A stretch of 64,000 nucleotides of DNA from Sorangium aterium (GTDB lineage: Bacteria > Myxococcota_A > Polyangia > Polyangiales > Polyangiaceae). Under the pieces are notes generated by a model, which saw only the letters and a program-made list of their open reading frames with translations, made no database searches and had not been told where the DNA came from. The DNA is taken from the NCBI RefSeq assembly GCF_028368935.1, contig NZ_JAQNDK010000003.1, forward strand, positions 1,674,001-1,738,000, read 5' to 3'. Shown in pieces: positions 44,197 to 52,590 of this stretch. Positions within the stretch are counted from its first letter, which is position 1; every line of letters starts with the position of its first letter. A program made the position numbers and the translations under genes.

Positions 44197-47100
44197 ATGT
44201 CCATTGATATCGTTCGAGGCGAGCTCGAGCGCCTCTTTTCGCTCGATGAAATGATGGCCCTGTCGTCCGACCTCCTCGGCTTCAACCCGGCCGAGATCGG
44301 GGGCAGCGCCTCCAAGGCCTCCTTCGCGCGCGCCCTCACGGATCATTGCGTGGAGCTCGACGCCATCGATGCGTTGATCGATGCCGTCATCGCCTCACGC
44401 GCAGAGGTCGACGCGCGCGTCCGCGCCCTCGGCGCTCATGGGCTCGGCCTGCCGGAAGAGATCGGGCCCGGCGAGGCGTTCGGCGACTACATCGTCACGA
44501 GAAAAATCGGCGAGGGCCCCCGGGGCCTCGTCTACGCGGCGACCCGGGGGACCGAGCCGCGGACGCTCAAGGTGCTCCGGCGCGAGGCGACCCGGGACAG
44601 CCGGGCGGTGCGCAGGTACCTCACCCACGTCCGCCTGGCCGCGCAGGTGCACCACGAGAACCTGGCGAGCGGCGTCGACGCGGGGATCGTGGGCGGCCGG
44701 GCGTTCGTGGCGTACGCGCACGTCGACGGGCTGCCGCTCTCGGCGCGCCTCGCGCGCTCGGGGCCGCTCCACATCAACGAGGCGAAGCCGCTGCTCCGAG
44801 GGATCCTCGGCGGCCTCGCCGCGCTCCACGAGCAGCGCCTCGTCCACGGCGCGCTCAAGCTCGAGAACGTCGTCGTGGCCCGCGGCGAGGACGGGGAGCC
44901 GCTCCCGGTCCTCGTCGACGTCGGCGGCGACCGGCTCGGCGCCGGGTGGTCCAGCCCGGAGCTCGTCGAGGCGGCCAGCCCCGAGCAGCTGCGCGGCGAG
45001 AGCGTCGGCCCCGCGAGCGATCTCTACGCCTTCGGCGCGCTGCTCTTCGAGCTCCTCACGGGCAAGCCCGTGTTCTCGGGCGCCGCCGCGGTCGACATCG
45101 CCGTCGCGCACCTCATCGAGCCGCCGCCGCCGCCGAGCGCTGTCGCGCCGCGCGGCTGGGTGGGCAAGGACGTCGACGAGCTCTCGGGCCGCCTGCTCGC
45201 GAAGGCGCAGGACGCCCGGCCGAGGGGGACGCGCGCGGTGCTCGACGCGATCGAGCCGCTCGGCAAGCCGCAGCAGAAGGAGGCGGCGATCGAGGGCGCG
45301 CAGCTGAACGACCTCATCGATCGGCTCGTCGCGAGCCCGATGGACACGGAGCTCGCGCTCGCCGTCGAGGCGGCCGTCGATCGGGGAGCGGACCCGGGGC
45401 GCGTGGCCGAGGCGCTCGTGATGGCCTCGGAGCAGATCGACGCGGGCTCGGCGCCCGGCCAGGGCGATGACCAGGCGGCCGCTGCGAAGAAGCTCCTGCA
45501 CTTCCGGGCGGCCAGGATCTACGAGAAGGGGCGGCTGCACGACAAGGCGGAGGCGGTCTACCTGCGCCTGCTCGAGCTCGCCCCGGGCGACGACATCGCC
45601 TTCAGCGCGCTCGAGGAGCTCCGCAAGGCGCTCGGCAAGCACGAGGAGCTCGTGGAGATGCTCCTCCAGCGGAGCGAGCGCGCCGAGACCGCCGGCGAGC
45701 GCGCCCGGGCGCTCAACGAGATCGGGCACCTCTACGTGCGGGAGCTCGACGACAAGGACCAGGGGGTGTTCGCCTTCGCCCAGGCGCTCGCGCAGGATCC
45801 GGAGCAGGACGCCTACGCCGTCGACCTGGAGCGCGCGGCCGGCAACGACATGAAGATCTGGTCCGAGGCGCTCCAGATCCTGAGCCAGGCGAGCACCGAC
45901 GAGGCGATGCCGGCCGAGGCGAAGCTCGCGCTCTTCAACCGGCTCGGGCCCTGGTATGCGGAGAAGGTCGCGCGGGCGGACCTCGGGATCCCGTGCTTCC
46001 AGTTCGTGCTCGGGCTCGACCCCGCGAACGAGGAGGCGCTGGAGGGGCTCTCGCAGGTCTACCGCCGCGCCCAGCAGTGGCAGGAGCTCGTCCAGGTGCT
46101 GCTCTCGCGGGCCGACCGCGCCGCGACGCCGGGGGAGGCGCGCGACCTCCGCGCCGCGGCGGCCGAGCTCCTGGAGACGAAGCTGAGCGACGCGGGCCGC
46201 GCGCGCGACCTGTACGAGCAGATCTTCGCCGAGGATCCGGGGCACACGAGGACGTGCGAGGCGCTGCTCAGGATCTACCGGCGCGCCGAGGATCACGCGG
46301 GCTACGCCAAGATCCTCGAGCGGCGCGCGGAGGCGCAGCGGGGCGAGGAGCGCGTCGACACGATCTGCAAGCTCGCCGAGCTCTACGAGGACCGGCTCGG
46401 GGACCTGGGCGAGGCGACGCGCCGCTACGAGGCGGCGCTCGAGCTCGATCCGGCCAGCCTGACGGCCCTGCGCGGGCTCGATCGCATCCACAGCCGCGCC
46501 GGCAGCTACGCGGCGCTCCTCCAGAACCTGGCGCGCCAGATCGACGTCAGCGCGACGCCGCGCCAGAAGATCAACCTCTACGAGCGGATCGCCGGCATCC
46601 ACGACGAGGAGTTCCTCGACCACGCGAAGGCGGCCGAGGCCCTCGAGGCGATCCTCGGGATCGACAGCGCGCACGAGGGCTCGCTCGCCGCGCTCGGGCG
46701 GCACTACCGCGCCCTCGAGCGCTGGGAGGACGTGGTGTCGCTCTACGAGCGGCAGCTCGGCATCGTGTCCGACGACAGGCGCCGGGAGGAGCTGCTGCTC
46801 GCGATGGGGCGCGTGCTCCTCGAGCAGATCGGCTCGCCCGAGCGCGCCCGCAAGGCCTACGAGCGGGTGCTCGCGATCGATCCCCACCACGCGGGGGCCC
46901 TGGAGTCGCTCGCGCACGTGCGGGCCGCGACGGGCGACGCCGCGGCGGCGCTGAGCGCGATCGAGTCGCTCGCGGCGACGGCGAAGACCGCGGAGAGCAG
47001 GGCCGATCTCTGGATCCGCGCGGCGAAGATGCTCGAGGAGAAGGGCGATCGGGACGGGGCGATCGAGCGCTACAAGATGGCCCTCGACGCGCAGCCGCAG

Positions 47101-49494
47101 AACGCGGGCGCGTCCTCGGCGCTGCGCGCGGCTTACCTCGCCCGGGGCGACGCGACGAGCGCCGTCGAGCTCATCGCGCGCGAGGCCGAGGCCGCGGAGG
47201 GCAACCTCGCCAAGGGCCGCCTGTACGGCGAGATGGCCCTGCTGCTCCGGGAGCGCCTCAAGGACGACGGGCGCGCGGCGGAGGCCGCGACGAGGGCGGT
47301 CGACCTCGATCCGACGTGCGTGCCCGGGCTCATGATCTCGGGCGATCTCGCGTTCGAGGCGGGCCGCTTCCTCGAGGCGGCGCGGCACTACGAGCTCCTG
47401 GCGAGCCGGGTCGACGTCCTGCCGAAGGAGCAGGGGCTCAAGCTGCTCCTCCGCTACGTCGACGCGCTCGGCAAGAGCGGCTCGAGCGGCAAGGCGATCG
47501 GCACGGTGAAGGCGCTGCTCGCGCTCGCGCCGGACGACCCGGCCGCGCTCGCGCGGGCCGCCAGGGTCAACCTCGACGCGGGCAGGGCCAAGGAGGCCGC
47601 GGAGCTCTACGGCCGCCTCGTGGACCGCTTCGGCGCCGGCCTGCCGGAGCGCGACCGGGCGGAGGCGCTCCTCGGGCTCGGCGAGGCGAGGCTCGCGGCC
47701 GGCGATCCGGACGGCGCGGTGGCCGCGCTGAACGGCGCCGCCGATCTCCTCCCGGAGTCCCCTGCCCCGCTCGCCCTGCTCTCCAAAGTGTTCGAGGCCA
47801 AGGGGGACTGGGAGGAGGTCGTGCGCCTCAAGCACCGGCGGCTCGACGTGGTGACCGGCGAGGAGCGGAGCGCGCTCCTGCTCGAGATCGGCGACCTGCT
47901 CGCGGCGCACCTCCACGACCGGGCGCGCGCCGCGAAGAGCTACGTGGCCGCGCTGGACGAGCGCCCGGACGACCGGAAGATCCTCACCAAGCTGATGCAG
48001 CTCTACAGCGAGGAGAAGGACTGGTCGAAGCTCGTCGACATCGTCCTCAAGCTCGCCGCCAAGATCGACGACAGCCGGCAGAAGGCGAAGTACCTGCACA
48101 CGGCGGCGATCGTGAGCGCGCGGCAGCTCGGCGATCTCGACCGCGCCGCCGCGTTCTACGACGAGGTGCTGGCGCTCGACCCGTCGCTCACCCGGGCGCT
48201 CGCGGAGGCGATCGAGCTCCGCGGCGAGAAGGGCGACCACGAGGAGGTGGAGCGCCTGCTCAAGGTCGAGCTCGACAGGGCGACCGAGGAGAACGACACG
48301 GCGAAGATGCTCGAGACGTTCGACCGGCTGGGCGCCCTCTACAAGGACAAGCTCGGCTGGGCGAGCGAGGCGATCGACGCCTACGAGGCAGCGCAGACGC
48401 TCGATCCCGACAGCGAGGAGCGGAACGAGCTCCTTGTGAACCTCTACGCCAGCAACCCGGCGGAGTACCTGGACAAGGCGGTGGCCGCGCAGGCCCCGAT
48501 CCTGCGGCGCAACCCGTACAAGCCGGACGCGTACCGGCTGCTCCGGAAGATGTACACAGAGGCGAAGCGCGCCGACGCGGCCTTCTGTCTGTGCCAGGTG
48601 CTCTGCTGCCTGAGCGCCGCCGAGCCGGACGAGGAGCGCTTCTTCCGGCGCCTTCGCCCCGACACGGCCGCGGCGGCGCAGCAGCCGCTCGACGACGACG
48701 CGTGGGCGACCGCGCTCGTCCACCCCGACGCGGATCCGCTCCTGACCGCGGTCTTCGGCGTCATCGAGCCGGCCGTGCTCAGGAAGAACGGGCGGCCGCT
48801 GGAGGAGCTCGGTTACCAGCTCGCCTACCAGCTCGATCTCTCGCGTCACCCCTACCCGATGTCGCAGACGCTCTACTACGCGGCGGGCGTCCTGGGGCTC
48901 TCGCCGCCGCTCACGTTCCAGGATCCGAACGACGGCGGCGGCGTCTCGTTCCTCCACGCGCACGTCCCGGCGATCGTGCTCGGCGCCGCGGCGCTCCAGA
49001 TGGACCTGCCCACGCAGGCCGCCGCGTTCATCGCGGCCCGCCACCTCACTTATTACCGCCCGGGCATGTACCTCCGGCACCTGGTGCCGACGGGCACCGG
49101 CCTGCGCGCCTGGCTGTTCGCGGCGATCAAGCTGATCTCGCCCACGTTCCCGATCACGAAGGAGCTGGAGGGGCCCGTGATGGACGACCTGGCCGTCCTG
49201 GAGCCCATCCTCGTCGGGCCGGCGCGCGATCAGCTCGCGAGCGCCGTGACGAAGCTGCTCCAGGCCGGCGCCATCGACCTGAAGCGCTGGGTGTCCGGCG
49301 TCGACCTGACGGCCGACCGCGCGGGGTTCCTCCTCGCCAACGACCTCGAGCTGGCGCAGGAGATGATCAAGGCGACCGACGAGGCGAGCGCCGCCCTGCC
49401 CCACAAGGAGAGGCTCAAGGAGCTCACGCTCTACGCGGCCAGCGAGGAGTACTTCGCCATCCGGCAGCGGCTCGGCATCAACATCGACAGCTGA
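44197..49494 (+). CDS. Giant pseudokinase-TPR repeat protein
   Basis: 1765 residues, with GAGGAG before the ATG. After an N-terminal helical region (1-90), a kinase-like domain (about 95-360) keeps the Gly loop (IGEGPRGLVYAA) and the ATP Lys (RTLKVLR), but HRD is HGA (HGALKLENVVV) and DFG is DVG (LVDVGGD), so catalytic and metal Asp are lost or altered. From about 390 to 1480 runs a continuous array of TPR-like helices (KAEAVYLRLLELAPGDDIAF, RARDLYEQIFAEDPGHTRT, KAYERVLAIDPHHAGAL and many more), followed by a 280-residue C-terminal domain with long helices (LGAAALQMDLPTQAAAFIAARHLTYYRPG). Large TPR-kinase proteins are typical of myxobacteria; here the kinase part is probably a scaffold or ATP sensor. 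Confidence 0.85.
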   Translation: MSIDIVRGELERLFSLDEMMALSSDLLGFNPAEIGGSASKASFARALTDHCVELDAIDALIDAVIASRAEVDARVRALGAHGLGLPEEIGPGEAFGDYIVTRKIGEGPRGLVYAATRGTEPRTLKVLRREATRDSRAVRRYLTHVRLAAQVHHENLASGVDAGIVGGRAFVAYAHVDGLPLSARLARSGPLHINEAKPLLRGILGGLAALHEQRLVHGALKLENVVVARGEDGEPLPVLVDVGGDRLGAGWSSPELVEAASPEQLRGESVGPASDLYAFGALLFELLTGKPVFSGAAAVDIAVAHLIEPPPPPSAVAPRGWVGKDVDELSGRLLAKAQDARPRGTRAVLDAIEPLGKPQQKEAAIEGAQLNDLIDRLVASPMDTELALAVEAAVDRGADPGRVAEALVMASEQIDAGSAPGQGDDQAAAAKKLLHFRAARIYEKGRLHDKAEAVYLRLLELAPGDDIAFSALEELRKALGKHEELVEMLLQRSERAETAGERARALNEIGHLYVRELDDKDQGVFAFAQALAQDPEQDAYAVDLERAAGNDMKIWSEALQILSQASTDEAMPAEAKLALFNRLGPWYAEKVARADLGIPCFQFVLGLDPANEEALEGLSQVYRRAQQWQELVQVLLSRADRAATPGEARDLRAAAAELLETKLSDAGRARDLYEQIFAEDPGHTRTCEALLRIYRRAEDHAGYAKILERRAEAQRGEERVDTICKLAELYEDRLGDLGEATRRYEAALELDPASLTALRGLDRIHSRAGSYAALLQNLARQIDVSATPRQKINLYERIAGIHDEEFLDHAKAAEALEAILGIDSAHEGSLAALGRHYRALERWEDVVSLYERQLGIVSDDRRREELLLAMGRVLLEQIGSPERARKAYERVLAIDPHHAGALESLAHVRAATGDAAAALSAIESLAATAKTAESRADLWIRAAKMLEEKGDRDGAIERYKMALDAQPQNAGASSALRAAYLARGDATSAVELIAREAEAAEGNLAKGRLYGEMALLLRERLKDDGRAAEAATRAVDLDPTCVPGLMISGDLAFEAGRFLEAARHYELLASRVDVLPKEQGLKLLLRYVDALGKSGSSGKAIGTVKALLALAPDDPAALARAARVNLDAGRAKEAAELYGRLVDRFGAGLPERDRAEALLGLGEARLAAGDPDGAVAALNGAADLLPESPAPLALLSKVFEAKGDWEEVVRLKHRRLDVVTGEERSALLLEIGDLLAAHLHDRARAAKSYVAALDERPDDRKILTKLMQLYSEEKDWSKLVDIVLKLAAKIDDSRQKAKYLHTAAIVSARQLGDLDRAAAFYDEVLALDPSLTRALAEAIELRGEKGDHEEVERLLKVELDRATEENDTAKMLETFDRLGALYKDKLGWASEAIDAYEAAQTLDPDSEERNELLVNLYASNPAEYLDKAVAAQAPILRRNPYKPDAYRLLRKMYTEAKRADAAFCLCQVLCCLSAAEPDEERFFRRLRPDTAAAAQQPLDDDAWATALVHPDADPLLTAVFGVIEPAVLRKNGRPLEELGYQLAYQLDLSRHPYPMSQTLYYAAGVLGLSPPLTFQDPNDGGGVSFLHAHVPAIVLGAAALQMDLPTQAAAFIAARHLTYYRPGMYLRHLVPTGTGLRAWLFAAIKLISPTFPITKELEGPVMDDLAVLEPILVGPARDQLASAVTKLLQAGAIDLKRWVSGVDLTADRAGFLLANDLELAQEMIKATDEASAALPHKERLKELTLYAASEEYFAIRQRLGINIDS

Positions 49495-49763
49495 GGACCG
49501 TCCCAGGCCGCGGAGCGCTGGCGCCCGGCCTCGATCTACGCCTGCCGGGACCGCCGCCGGCGGAATCTGGCAGGCCGGGTCAACTGGATCATCGACGATC
49601 CAGCTGCGGGATGTCGCTTCCTGCCCACTTCCGCACCGGACTGGTTGACGGATAAATCCTCAAATTGCTAGGCTGCTGGCCGGCATTAGGCCCTTTTCGA
49701 TCGTATGTTAGCTCGCCGCAGCGTGGCAGCGGGCAGCCTGAGCGATTGTGTGAAAGCACGCCC

Positions 49764-51671
49764 ATGGCGGCAAAGAAGACCCGAAAAACTTCGAAAAAAG
49801 ACCGGAAGAGAGCGACCAAGGCCAGCGCGGCAAGCTCGAGGCGAGCAACCTCGACAGCGCGGACACGGAAGGCGAAGCCTGCCGCCCGCTCCGCCGCGCG
49901 CAAGCCGAAGCGGAAGGCCGCATCCTCTCGTCCTGCTGCGCGACGCACCGCTGCTGTGAAGGCGGCAAAGCGGCGGAAAACCACGACAAAACGGGCGACC
50001 ACCCGCAAGTCGGCTGCCCCGGCGCGGCGCAAGGCGGCGCGCACGACCCGTACGGGCGCGAGGAAGAAAGCGGCGGTCGGGAGGGCGAAGAAGGCCACCC
50101 GCGCGGCCGCGAAGCGAACGAGCGCGTCGAAGGCGAAGAAGGCCGCGGCCAGGACGAAGGCCAGGTCGACGCGCACCGCCGCCAAGCTCAGGACGACCAA
50201 GGCCAGGGCGAAGGCCAGGGCGACGAAGGTCAAGGCGAGGGCGGCGAAGGCCAGGGCGACGCGGGCGAAGACGGCGAGGGCCAAGGCCACGAAGGCCAGG
50301 GTGACCCGCGCCAGGGTCGCAAAGCCGAGGGCCGCGAAGGTCAGGGCCGCGAAGACCAGGGCGGTCGCCGGGCGGGCGCGGAAAGCGAAGGCCGCGAAGA
50401 CGAAGGCCGCGCGGGTCAAGGCCACGAAGCCGAGGCTCGTGCGGGTCAAGGCCGCCAAGCCGAGGCTCGTGCGGGTCAAGGCCGCCAAGCCGAGGCTCGT
50501 GCGGGTCAAGGCCACGAAGCCGAGGCTCGTCAGGAGAAAGGTCGCGGCGCGCTCCGAGCGGGCGCTCGCGGCGCCGGCGGCGGAGCCGACGAAGCTCCGC
50601 AAGAAGCTGAAGCTGAGGCTCGACGATCAGCCGAAGCTCAAGGAGAAGCCGAAGCTCAAGGAGAAGCTGAAGCTCAAGGACGTCGCGGAGCAGGCCGCGC
50701 CGAGCGAGGTCGAGCGACCGCGCCGGGCGAGCGACAGACCGTCACGCACGAGCGACAAGCCGGTCGCCGACAAGAAGAGCGCGCGGCCTGGCGGGGCGAA
50801 GGGGAAGAGCGCAGGGGCGTCGATCGAGCGCCGTCCGGGTCGCGCCCCGCTCCGGGAGGCGCCGCGGGTGGTCACCCTGCCGCTGCCGATGCTGCCGCCG
50901 CCTCGGCGAGCCACCATCGAGGAGCGCAGCGCGATCATCGAGCAGCGGTTGAACGCGCAGTCGGAGGACTTCCGGCGGCGCTACATCGACAGCCTCGATA
51001 TGTCGTGGATTTACCACGACAGCGCGCTCGAAGGGGTTGTCTACACGTTCGACGAGCTGCGCGCGGCCCTCGCCGGCCCGGCGCCGCTCGTCACGGACTC
51101 GAGCCTTCAGCCGACGTACGATGACATCCGGCGGCACAAGGAGGCCATCGCGTACGTGCGCGAGCAGGGCGAGAACAAGCGGGCCCCGCTCACGCTCGAC
51201 TGCATGAAGAAGCTGTACCTGATCCTCCATCCGGAGGAGGGGGATCTCAAGACGGTCAAATACCGCAAGGACATCCCCCAGCATCGGCTCTACTTCCACG
51301 AGTACGCTCCGCCGGACAAGATCGCCTACAAGGTGCGTCAGATCATCGACTGGCTGAACGACCCCGAGACGCGGAAGACGCGGAACGGCATCCGGATCGC
51401 CGCGCGCGCGCACTACGATCTGCTGCGGGTCTATCCGTTCCCGAACGACAGCGGCAAGGTCGCGAGGCTGTTCATGAACATGCTGCTGCTCCGCACGGGC
51501 CTGCCTCCGTCGATCATCCACTCGACCGAGCGGCAGCGCTACTACGAGGCGCTGAAGGGCTCGGCGACGACGGTGCTGCAGATGGTGCAGGAGTCGGTGG
51601 AAAACGCGCTCGCGAGCGTCGAGAAGCTCCTCGATGAGCATGAGACGCGGAAGCGCGCCTTCGTCAGCTGA
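49764..51671 (+). CDS. Histone H1-like/Fic-domain fusion with degenerate Fic motif
   Basis: 635 residues from the ATG at MAAKKTRK; an earlier ATG would add 33 residues. Residues 1-270 are Lys/Arg/Ala-rich, like bacterial histone H1 or HctB (KARATKVKARAAKARATRAK), including four KPRLVRVKAA repeats made by 30-bp DNA repeats (50427-50546). A charged linker (KLKEKPKLKEKLKLKD) follows. The C-terminal part (about 380-635) is a Fic domain: the inhibitory-helix-like DSALEG (420) and the Fic loop YPFPNDSGKVAR (557-568). Compared with HPFxDGNGRxxR the catalytic His is Tyr, D/E is Asn and GNGR is DSGK, so AMP transfer is unlikely. A nucleoid-bound regulator is possible. It overlaps the extended reading of nth. 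Confidence 0.82.
   Translation: MAAKKTRKTSKKDRKRATKASAASSRRATSTARTRKAKPAARSAARKPKRKAASSRPAARRTAAVKAAKRRKTTTKRATTRKSAAPARRKAARTTRTGARKKAAVGRAKKATRAAAKRTSASKAKKAAARTKARSTRTAAKLRTTKARAKARATKVKARAAKARATRAKTARAKATKARVTRARVAKPRAAKVRAAKTRAVAGRARKAKAAKTKAARVKATKPRLVRVKAAKPRLVRVKAAKPRLVRVKATKPRLVRRKVAARSERALAAPAAEPTKLRKKLKLRLDDQPKLKEKPKLKEKLKLKDVAEQAAPSEVERPRRASDRPSRTSDKPVADKKSARPGGAKGKSAGASIERRPGRAPLREAPRVVTLPLPMLPPPRRATIEERSAIIEQRLNAQSEDFRRRYIDSLDMSWIYHDSALEGVVYTFDELRAALAGPAPLVTDSSLQPTYDDIRRHKEAIAYVREQGENKRAPLTLDCMKKLYLILHPEEGDLKTVKYRKDIPQHRLYFHEYAPPDKIAYKVRQIIDWLNDPETRKTRNGIRIAARAHYDLLRVYPFPNDSGKVARLFMNMLLLRTGLPPSIIHSTERQRYYEALKGSATTVLQMVQESVENALASVEKLLDEHETRKRAFVS
50427..50546. repeat. 30-bp tandem repeats in the histone-like region
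   Basis: Units of AAGCCGAGGCTCGTGCGGGT... start at 50427, 50457, 50487 and 50517 (the last diverges after 14 bp). Each encodes KPRLVRVKAA. Near-identity at DNA level indicates recent expansion. Confidence 0.88.
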
Positions 51672-51792
51672 GACGGCAGAGGGCGGTCGCGCGCGAGGCC
51701 TCGCCCTGACTGGGCGGGGTGCGCGCCGACCGCCCGCGTCGGCCGCTGTCCATCCCGCAGGTCCACATCGAGACGAGGGCGTCGCCGCGCCG

Positions 51793-52590
51793 GTGAAGCG
51801 GCCGAGCAAGGCGGCTCCCGGGGGTGCCCTCAGGGCGGCGAAGACGCGCGCGCCGAGGCCCGAGAAGGCGGCGGTCGCCGACGCGGCTCGGCCGACGCCG
51901 GCGCGCGCAGCGCCGAGCGCGCCGCAGGCCACCTTCGCGCGGCTGCGCGCGCTGCACCCGGACGCCCACTGCGAGCTGGATCATCGCTCCTCGTTCGAGC
52001 TCCTCGTCGCGACGGTGCTCAGCGCCCAGACGACGGACGTGCTGGTCAACAAGGTGACACCCCACCTGTTCGGCGCGTATGCCGACGCCCGCGCGCTCGC
52101 CAGCGCCGACGCCGCCGAGGTGGGCGCGCTCCTCCGGCGGCTCGGGATGGGCATGTTCAACCAGAAGGCGAGGAACATCGTGGGGCTCGCGCGAGGCCTC
52201 GTCGAGCGGCACGGCGGCGAGGTGCCGAGGACGCTCGCCGAGCTCGTGAAGCTGCCCGGCGTCGGGCGCAAGACGGCGAACGTGGTGCTCGGCGTCGCCT
52301 TCGGAGCGCCGGAGGGCGTCGTGGTCGATACACACGTGCAGCGCCTGTCGCAGCGGCTCGGGTGGACGACCAGCGACAAGCCAGAGCAGATCGAGCGCGA
52401 CCTCGTGGCGCTCTTCCCGCGGCGCGACTGGGACATGCTGTCCCACACGCTGATCTTTCACGGCCGCCGGATCTGCTTCGCGAAGAAGCCAGCGTGCGGA
52501 GGCTGCGGGATCAGCGACGCGTGCCCGAGCGCATTTCACGCAGAGAACGTGGGGCGCAAGCCGCCGCGGCGCCGCGGCGCCGCGCCGTGA
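51793..52590 (+). CDS. nth: Endonuclease III
   Basis: 265 residues from a GTG at 51793; a longer ATG frame (51634) would overlap the Fic gene by 38 bp and add a low-complexity tail. The catalytic part matches E. coli Nth (211 aa): LVATVLSAQTTDVLVNKVTPHLF, helix-hairpin-helix LPGVGRKTANVVL with the catalytic Lys, DTHVQRLSQRLG with the catalytic Asp, and the 4Fe-4S ligands CFAKKPACGGCGISDAC (Cx6Cx2Cx5C). It removes oxidised pyrimidines in base excision repair. About 50 extra N-terminal residues are Ala/Pro/Arg-rich. Confidence 0.9.
   Translation: MKRPSKAAPGGALRAAKTRAPRPEKAAVADAARPTPARAAPSAPQATFARLRALHPDAHCELDHRSSFELLVATVLSAQTTDVLVNKVTPHLFGAYADARALASADAAEVGALLRRLGMGMFNQKARNIVGLARGLVERHGGEVPRTLAELVKLPGVGRKTANVVLGVAFGAPEGVVVDTHVQRLSQRLGWTTSDKPEQIERDLVALFPRRDWDMLSHTLIFHGRRICFAKKPACGGCGISDACPSAFHAENVGRKPPRRRGAAP

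What the first reader, a model, noticed from the sequence alone, without database searches (positions are those of the whole stretch)
49764..51671. Histone-like tail fused to a degenerate Fic domain
Lys/Arg/Ala-rich H1-like repeats put a Fic fold on DNA, but the active-site His is Tyr and the phosphate loop is altered (YPFPNDSGKVAR). A nucleoid-associated Fic pseudoenzyme, beside nth, may be an unreported regulator.
Basis: partly seen in the sequence, partly recalled or inferred. Interest (0 to 1): 0.75.

Follow-up and report, generated by a model that had tools for sequence, protein, structure and literature searches.

The report
Histone-tailed, histidine-less Fic protein
A gene of a soil myxobacterium joins a long positively charged, histone-like tail to a Fic-type enzyme fold that has lost the residue Fic enzymes normally need; the fold with its altered active site is kept as a single-copy gene across this group of bacteria, so it is probably not decayed but doing something other than standard AMP transfer.

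Summary
The 635-aa ORF at 49764-51671 has a strongly basic N-terminal half (residues 1-290: 39% K+R, net +108) and a C-terminal Fic domain (Pfam E 6e-9; AlphaFold model pLDDT 91, closest to FICD, Z 26) with Tyr where the catalytic His should be. 'Degenerate' is the wrong word. The same non-canonical site, [YF]-P-F-x-x-[DHQ]-S-G-K-x-x-R, recurs in 84 distinct orthologues. Across 124 family members the His position is aromatic in 122, Ser in 1, His in 1; the inhibitory-helix Glu/Asp-Gly, a flap Arg and Tyr and the last motif Arg are always kept. The gene was found, in one copy, in 99 of 103 sampled genomes of the class, under strong purifying selection (dN/dS 0.05-0.12), as one clade apart from 8 canonical Fics. 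The tail is a later addition: long in 28 of 84. nth adjoins in 9 of 108 loci. Most likely: a conserved Fic-fold protein that binds a phosphate-bearing ligand without His-based AMP transfer, tethered to nucleic acid by its tail in one lineage. Pseudoenzyme or new chemistry is open; nothing was assayed. New variant of a known kind.

The parts
49764..51671 (+). whole gene: 635-aa protein, basic tail + linker + Fic-fold domain
   Evidence: Met kept in all six genomes of the genus compared; single copy in the genome
49764..50633 (+). residues 1-290: K/R/A-rich histone H1-like tail (39% K+R, net +108)
   Evidence: composition; dN/dS 0.20-0.41, frame kept through length changes between species; longest basic stretch by far among 2326 sampled ORFs
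50388..50530 (+). 30-bp tandem repeat, 4.8 copies, coding the AKPRLVRVKA-type decapeptide repeat
50634..50912 (+). residues 291-383: fast-evolving linker (dN/dS 0.29-0.90)
50913..51668 (+). residues 384-635: Fic-fold domain, class II layout (inhibitory helix N-terminal)
   Evidence: dN/dS 0.05-0.12
51006..51044 (+). residues 415-427, WIYHDSALEGVVY: inhibitory-helix motif with Glu423-Gly424
   Evidence: E423 and G424 84 of 84; E 37 / D 3 and G 40 of 40 deeper members
51261..51320 (+). residues 500-519, YRKDIPQHRLYFHEYAPPDK: re-sculpted flap; R501, P505, H507, Y510, F511, H512, K519 are 84 of 84 in the orthologues
   Evidence: R501 and Y510 also 40 of 40 in deeper members
51432..51467 (+). residues 557-568, YPFPNDSGKVAR: altered Fic core motif (Tyr at the catalytic-His position)
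51634..52590 (+). neighbour: nth-type endonuclease III (mechanical ORF; true start may lie further in)
   Evidence: HhH-GPD E 3.7e-21; adjacent in 9 of 108 loci

Best explanation
This is a member of a vertically inherited, single-copy family of Fic-fold proteins of the Myxococcota in which the His-centred AMP-transfer site has been replaced by a fixed alternative site: an aromatic residue at the His position, no conserved metal-binding acid, Ser/Thr or Pro plus Gly at the anion-binding turn, and the last Arg kept opposite the Glu of an N-terminal inhibitory helix. Shown here: the fold (predicted), the replacement, its conservation, the single copy, and purifying selection. Inferred: the pocket still binds a phosphate-bearing ligand such as a nucleotide, and the protein works as a ligand-gated binding protein (a pseudoenzyme that reports or scaffolds through the flap and the inhibitory helix), not as a standard AMPylator. 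In the Polyangiaceae-type lineage the protein gained a long histone H1-like tail that most likely holds it non-specifically on DNA or RNA, so that whatever it binds or senses is dealt with at the nucleoid; DNA binding is inferred from charge and composition alone.
For: Fic fold: (FICD 6i7g Z 26.4, rmsd 2.5 over 237 residues). His position: Phe 42, Tyr 40, Ser 1, His 1 of 84 orthologues; Phe 19, Tyr 17, Trp 4 of 40 deeper members. Kept over all 124: inhibitory Glu (Asp in 3), Gly424, Arg501, Tyr510, Arg568. Of 244 domain columns 43 are at least 97% invariant: 24 of 45 in the inhibitory-helix, flap and core-motif segments against 19 of 199 elsewhere. dN/dS 0.05-0.12 in the domain. Distribution: 56 of 59 genomes (own included) match at E 1e-3, of which G026 holds only a fragment and G028 only an ordinary Fic, leaving 54 with a long, strong match; in the phylum survey 31 of 34 same-family, 35 of 36 same-order and 33 of 33 other same-class genomes, one match each but for three genomes with two partial matches, two of which (G274, G356) are adjacent pieces on one contig. 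One clade against 8 canonical Fics, SH-aLRT 99.9. Tail. Precedents seen as passages: BepC, a non-canonical FIC with no activity found, which binds and relocates GEF-H1 (PMC8401265); CbFic2, a class II Fic stimulated by DNA binding (PMC10628234).
Against: Invariance of polar pocket and flap residues (H507, Y510, H512, K519, and K565 in 80 of 84) fits an active enzyme with other chemistry at least as well as a pseudoenzyme; helix, flap and motif are partly conserved in Fic proteins in general. Position 9 of the core motif, Lys in 80 of 84 orthologues, is Thr 12, Lys 6, Arg 6, Val 6 and others in the 40 deeper members, so ligand binding need not be the same throughout. AvrB has a divergent motif and is an enzyme (PMC10866546, passages). 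No shared neighbour gives a functional clue. Basic tails can also bind RNA or other polyanions; the tail-less orthologues show that the core function does not need it. The gene was not found at E 1e-30 in 4 of 103 same-class genomes, one of which (G026) has a fragment.
Confidence: 0.45

Rival explanations
1. Altered-chemistry enzyme: the fold still transfers a group from a (di)phosphate-charged cosubstrate to a target, but with other catalytic residues (for example the invariant flap His/Tyr or Lys565) instead of the core-motif His, as AvrB does with a nucleotide sugar.
For: Invariant residues concentrate in the helix, flap and motif segments. Divergent-motif AvrB is a rhamnosyltransferase that needs no divalent cation (PMC10866546, passages). 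Single copy and strong constraint fit a housekeeping enzyme. A clade of Doc proteins (D2) also has the catalytic His replaced, by Gln (PMC4454073, passages).
Against: Flap His507/His512 and Lys565 are not conserved in the deeper members (H507 25 of 40, H512 16 of 40, Lys at motif position 9 in 6 of 40), so of the side chains I checked only the inhibitory Glu/Asp, Arg501, Tyr510 and Arg568 are family-wide. No substrate is known.
Confidence: 0.33
2. The tail is not a DNA tether: it binds RNA or ribosomes, or is a neutral, easily expanding low-complexity extension tolerated in high-GC genomes; only the Fic domain matters. (This can hold together with either reading of the Fic domain.)
For: Long in 28, short in 8 and not seen in 48 of 84 orthologues; built partly of tandem repeats; sequence turns over fast, dN/dS 0.20-0.41 against 0.05-0.12 in the domain.
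Against: The basic make-up recurs across orthologues while the sequence changes, dN/dS is well under 1, and such long tails are rare in the sampled part of this genome. A lysine-rich tail on another protein and a K/A-rich extension of nth in a related genome (L037) suggest a recurrent nucleic-acid-directed device.
Confidence: 0.3
3. An ordinary AMPylating or deAMPylating Fic despite the odd motif.
For: Class II layout with the inhibitory Glu and last Arg kept; one member (L090) has His at the site.
Against: The general-base His is absent in 123 of 124, the metal-binding acid is not conserved, and GNG is replaced. Papers seen as passages state that this His is required for Fic AMPylation.
Confidence: 0.05
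4. A decaying gene, or a chance fusion or misassembly.
For: The loss of the catalytic His, and in the genome survey some genomes with a stop inside the matched stretch or the gene in two pieces.
Against: Same fusion in six genomes of the genus and in further genera such as Minicystis; dN/dS 0.05-0.12; motif kept in 84 orthologues.
Confidence: 0.01

Closest known systems
FICD/HYPE (class II Fic; PDB 6i7g and others)
   Same: Fold over nearly the whole domain (Z 26.4), N-terminal inhibitory helix with Glu-Gly, last Arg of the core motif, [FY]-R before the flap.
   Different: FICD has HPFIDGNGR and AMPylates; here YPFPNDSGK, a different flap, no TPR part, a basic tail instead.
BtFic BT_2513 (3cuc)
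   Same: Bacterial class II Fic; the first entry after the FICD entries in the structure comparison (Z 25.1) and third in the sequence table (E 1e-16).
   Different: Its aligned stretch reads IHPFEDGNGRIAR, a canonical site.
CbFic2 (8cil)
   Same: Class II Fic that binds DNA, in part non-specifically (passages of PMC10628234).
   Different: DNA binding by a C-terminal HTH domain; canonical HPFDDGNGRIGR motif; active AMPylator/deAMPylator.
BepC FIC domain and other non-canonical Bartonella FICs
   Same: Non-canonical FIC for which no activity was found and which acts by binding a partner (passages of PMC8401265).
   Different: Keeps a His in the motif (a figure legend names H146); host-directed effector with a BID domain; inhibitory helix on a separate antitoxin (partly recalled).
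Doc clade D2 (Qx[FY]x[DE][GV]NKR)
   Same: A whole clade of the Fic/Doc fold with the catalytic His replaced (passages of PMC4454073).
   Different: Gln instead of an aromatic residue, Doc type, GNKR-like rest of the motif kept.
AvrB
   Same: Fido fold with divergent core motif (Z about 12).
   Different: Known rhamnosyltransferase (passages of PMC10866546); 9% identity in the structure alignment; not among the 22 sequence matches.
Histone H1-like proteins (Pfam HC2, PF07382)
   Same: K/A/R-rich, repetitive, acid-poor tail (likeness by composition).
   Different: No Pfam HC2 match to this protein at E up to 1; the tail is fused to a Fic domain.

Membership tests
Fic fold (Pfam PF02661, Fic/DOC) | Profile match over the curated cut-off | tested here: met
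   37 bits, cut-off 24; 6 of 6 more distant members tested also over cut-off
Fic fold (Pfam PF02661, Fic/DOC) | Fic three-dimensional fold | tested here: met
   AlphaFold model pLDDT 91.4; FICD chains top both structure comparisons; a predicted, not solved, structure
Canonical AMPylating Fic enzyme | Catalytic His of HxFx[DE]GNGRxxR | tested here: not met
   Tyr557 here; His in 1 of 124 members
Canonical AMPylating Fic enzyme | Metal-binding acid and GNG anion hole | tested here: not met
   x-[DHQ]-S-G-K in orthologues; position 5 variable
Canonical AMPylating Fic enzyme | AMP transfer activity | not testable with these tools
   needs purified protein
Class II Fic | Inhibitory helix [ST]xxxE[GN] N-terminal to the core, with partner Arg | tested here: inconclusive
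   Position, Glu423-Gly424 and Arg568 are met, 84 of 84, but the [ST] residue is Asp here (DSALEG; Asp419 84 of 84), so the literal motif is not
Pseudoenzyme | Absence of catalysis | not testable with these tools
   only the loss of the known catalytic residue is shown
Histone H1-like / HC2 nucleoprotein | Profile match (PF07382) | tested here: not met
   not among families at E up to 1; in the whole genome one sub-threshold match, elsewhere
Nucleoid-associated protein | DNA binding in vitro or nucleoid localisation | not testable with these tools
   inferred from charge and composition only
Fic toxin-antitoxin module | Adjacent small antitoxin gene | tested here: inconclusive
   the neighbour survey kept only ORFs of at least 90 aa, so a smaller antitoxin gene would have been missed
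Fic toxin-antitoxin module | Patchy, mobile distribution | tested here: not met
   found in 99 of 103 same-class genomes; tree largely groups by family; no relative in viral contigs by tblastn; 132 plasmid records match, each under 60% identity, 13 of the 15 listed annotated as Fic family protein

The most novel reading that the evidence does not exclude
An ancient core protein of the Myxococcota in which the Fic fold was rebuilt for a new job (a His-independent transferase or a nucleotide/phosphometabolite sensor locked by its own inhibitory helix), later anchored to the chromosome in the Polyangiaceae by a histone H1-like tail: a chromosome-bound Fic-derived signalling protein unlike any I found described.
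Probability: 0.35. Interest if true: 0.8.

Novelty: new variant of a known kind. Interest (0 to 1): 0.57.

Why it matters
Fic proteins are best known as toxins, effectors or stress enzymes defined by one histidine. A Fic-fold family that lacks it, yet is single-copy and nearly universal in a whole bacterial class, says the fold has a stable cellular job outside His-based AMP transfer, and offers a clean, tail-less and tailed set of natural variants with which to test what the inhibitory helix and pocket do when the usual catalysis is gone. If the tail tethers it to the nucleoid, it also links the Fic fold to chromosome biology in bacteria.

Tried and rejected
Operon logic: nth is adjacent in 9 of 108 loci; elsewhere immediate neighbours look like HisF (8), methionine aminopeptidase (10), TolC-like (9), ThiE (18), a TlpA/thioredoxin-like protein (20), RibA (14) or a branched-chain aminotransferase (11) (counts within 500 bases; named by eye from the sequences, no family search of them), so a functional link to DNA repair was set aside. 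Several loci have short flanks, so the counts are lower bounds.

Mobile origin: set aside. In the viral scan 10 stretches matched a pattern, none encoded a relative. A toxin-antitoxin role is unlikely from the distribution but not excluded: ORFs under 90 aa were not examined.

A second canonical class II Fic as partner in the same genome: the only other Fic-profile match is a protein with HCFVDGNKR, Doc-type by my reading.

A family named for it: Pfam only generic Fic; NCBIfam XopAC and mob_myst_B (and, for the domain alone, hemerythrin) far below their cut-offs.

Papers: seven searches; from the titles and abstract starts listed I saw no paper on this family. One search (Fic + myxobacteria + AMPylation) held one off-topic paper. 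This covers only the held open-access library. Seven papers were seen as found passages only.

The VIA-align rows are a second look at Foldseek's own candidates.

A control against the simple picture: L197 (genome G032) holds a different, two-segment Fic-like protein with RPFDGGNER, also without the His, so His loss is not unique to this family in these genomes.

Rows dropped before counts: 13 duplicate domains among 97 loci. For alignment A1 (50 rows): 28 of 84 by an 85% identity filter, L092 for an unreadable stretch, and L014, L044, L051, L056, L059 by my choice for long extra stretches. In the rooted tree 45 of 124 rows plus 8 of the 17 outgroup loci. Of the distant matches I read 28 of the 40 from other classes and 12 of the 33 from other orders of the class. 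Tail lengths use stop-to-stop ORFs, and some contigs begin close to the gene. In those 40 distant members a tail was reported only for the 10 with at least 60 residues before the domain, 0 of 10. That no other same-class genome lacks the gene is read from the order of the list, where 217 further misses are not printed.

The general motif HxFx[DE]GNGRxxR was recalled, then seen in papers.

Full report
What was reported and what is there. The ORF 49764-51671 (+) encodes 635 aa. All six genomes of the genus compared (own included) share the Met and MAAKKTRKT[SA]KKDRKRATKAS; some ten codons before it are also kept in frame, so an earlier non-ATG start is not excluded. The window lies in a 13.5-Mb genome; the nearest named orthologues are Sorangium strains, 96-98% identical over the Fic domain.

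The tail. Residues 1-290 hold 56 K, 57 R, 84 A and 5 D/E (net +108), followed by a 93-residue linker. Part is a 30-bp tandem repeat. Between the six genomes the frame is kept through length changes, and dN/dS is 0.20-0.41 in the tail, 0.29-0.90 in the linker and 0.05-0.12 in the Fic domain, so the tail is coding and constrained more in kind than in sequence. Such a long basic stretch (388 residues; next 122, 66, 61) occurs once in 2326 stop-to-stop ORFs of at least 100 aa from 464 kb of this genome. In 84 distinct orthologues it is long (100 or more residues) in 28, short (40-99) in 8 and not seen in 48. All 28 long tails lie in the 52-row clade of the window's family and near relatives, and parsimony needs at least 4 changes between long and not long. 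It is thus a lineage-specific addition.

The fold. Pfam calls Fic at 6.2e-9. phmmer against solved structures puts FICD, its C. elegans homologue and BtFic first (E 4e-17 to 1e-16), with Tyr557 opposite FICD's catalytic His. The AlphaFold model on 50 aligned orthologues has pLDDT 91.4 and pTM 0.90; Foldseek and VIA-align rank FICD first (Z 26.4, rmsd 2.5 over 237 residues).

The site. In 84 orthologues the core motif is [YF]-P-F-x-x-[DHQ]-S-G-K-x-x-R: His position Phe 42, Tyr 40, Ser 1, His 1; Ser 82/Thr 2; Gly 84; Lys 80; last Arg 84. In the inhibitory helix, D-S-A-[LI]-E-G, Asp, Glu and Gly are 84 of 84, and in the flap YRKDxPxHRxYFH R501, P505, H507, Y510, F511, H512 and K519 are 84 of 84. 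Of 244 columns 43 are at least 97% invariant; 24 of 45 lie in the helix, flap and motif segments against 19 of 199 elsewhere; these segments are partly conserved in Fic proteins in general, so this shows constraint, not novelty. The single His member (L090) reads HPFARHSGK.

How far it reaches. A profile of 50 orthologues was run over 377 genomes of the phylum at E 1e-30: 140 have it, namely the window's own, 31 of 34 of the same family, 35 of 36 of the same order, 33 of 33 other same-class genomes (by the order of the printed list) and 40 of 273 others. I read 40 of the distant loci, 28 from other classes and 12 from other orders of the class. Two further flavours appear outside the class: YPFRRNPGTTARL with a SPVHRDY flap, and [FW]PFDERTGVVGRL-like with an RDTSPGVY-like flap. 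In these 40 the His position is Phe 19, Tyr 17, Trp 4; inhibitory Glu 37, Asp 3; Gly424, Arg501, Tyr510 and last Arg 40 of 40. Six of six tested are Fic by Pfam. In a tree with 8 canonical Fics (3 from plasmids, 5 from relatives' genomes) the 45 family rows used form one clade, SH-aLRT 99.9 (quick search, several long branches). So the loss of His looks ancestral to the sampled family. Presence outside the phylum is untested.

Controls. Weak matches and plasmid matches were fetched (17 loci) and read: 16 of 17 have HP[FY]xxGNGR, and 11 of these also have a [ST]xxxE[GN] stretch in the same frame. The alignment at the His position is therefore sound. The seventeenth, L197, reads RPFDGGNER: another Fic-like protein without the His, outside this family.

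Context. Of 108 loci with flanks, nth adjoins in 9; other clades have other, housekeeping-like neighbours. The upstream gene here is a 1765-aa kinase-TPR protein, next to the gene in 8 of 108 loci. No promoter-like match was found and terminator-like sites are at chance, 3 against 2.6 expected. The only other Fic-profile protein of this genome is Doc-like. ORFs under 90 aa were not examined.

How it most likely works. Standard Fic catalysis needs the His as general base (passages), which this family lacks, so ordinary AMP transfer is unlikely. Yet the pocket, flap and inhibitory Glu-Arg pair are held tightly, which argues for a retained ligand. I favour a ligand-gated pseudoenzyme (0.45), with an AvrB-like altered transferase close behind (0.33; AvrB passages). 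BepC shows a non-canonical FIC acting by binding, and CbFic2 shows a Fic enzyme stimulated by DNA binding. The H1-like tail would keep the protein at nucleic acid in one lineage. This last step is inference.

Novelty. The fold is known, a His-less Doc clade has been noted, and DNA-binding Fics exist. A phylum-level, single-copy, aromatic-for-His Fic family of class II layout, and its fusion to a histone-like tail, were not seen in the listings of seven searches of the held papers. I rate it a new variant of a known kind.

Noticed in passing
window 51634-52590; L037 6760-7645: In a related genome (L037) the nth-type endonuclease III beside the gene carries a K/A-rich N-terminal extension; the window's own is milder. 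Basic tails may recur on DNA-acting proteins in this clade.
   Followed up: partly
L189 (G000:C2:845148-845324): Another protein of this genome has a C-terminal PAKKA-type lysine-rich tail, the only (sub-threshold) HC2 profile match in the genome.
   Followed up: partly
L090 6004-6741: One orthologue of 84 has His (CAC) at the catalytic position while keeping the rest of the altered motif.
   Followed up: no
L197 (G032:C3:54000-56200): A separate, two-segment Fic-like protein in a relative reads RPFDGGNERLGR, that is, also without the catalytic His.
   Followed up: no
G127, G274, G356: The gene is matched in two pieces in three same-order genomes (in G127 on two contigs); split, frameshift or assembly error not resolved.
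   Followed up: no
window 44197-49494: 1765-aa protein with an N-terminal Ser/Thr kinase domain and many TPR repeats directly upstream, next to the gene in 8 of 108 loci.
   Followed up: no
window 49589-50602, minus strand: 337-aa open frame antisense to the tail, probably a by-product of its GC-rich repetitive coding; no evidence that it is a gene.
   Followed up: no
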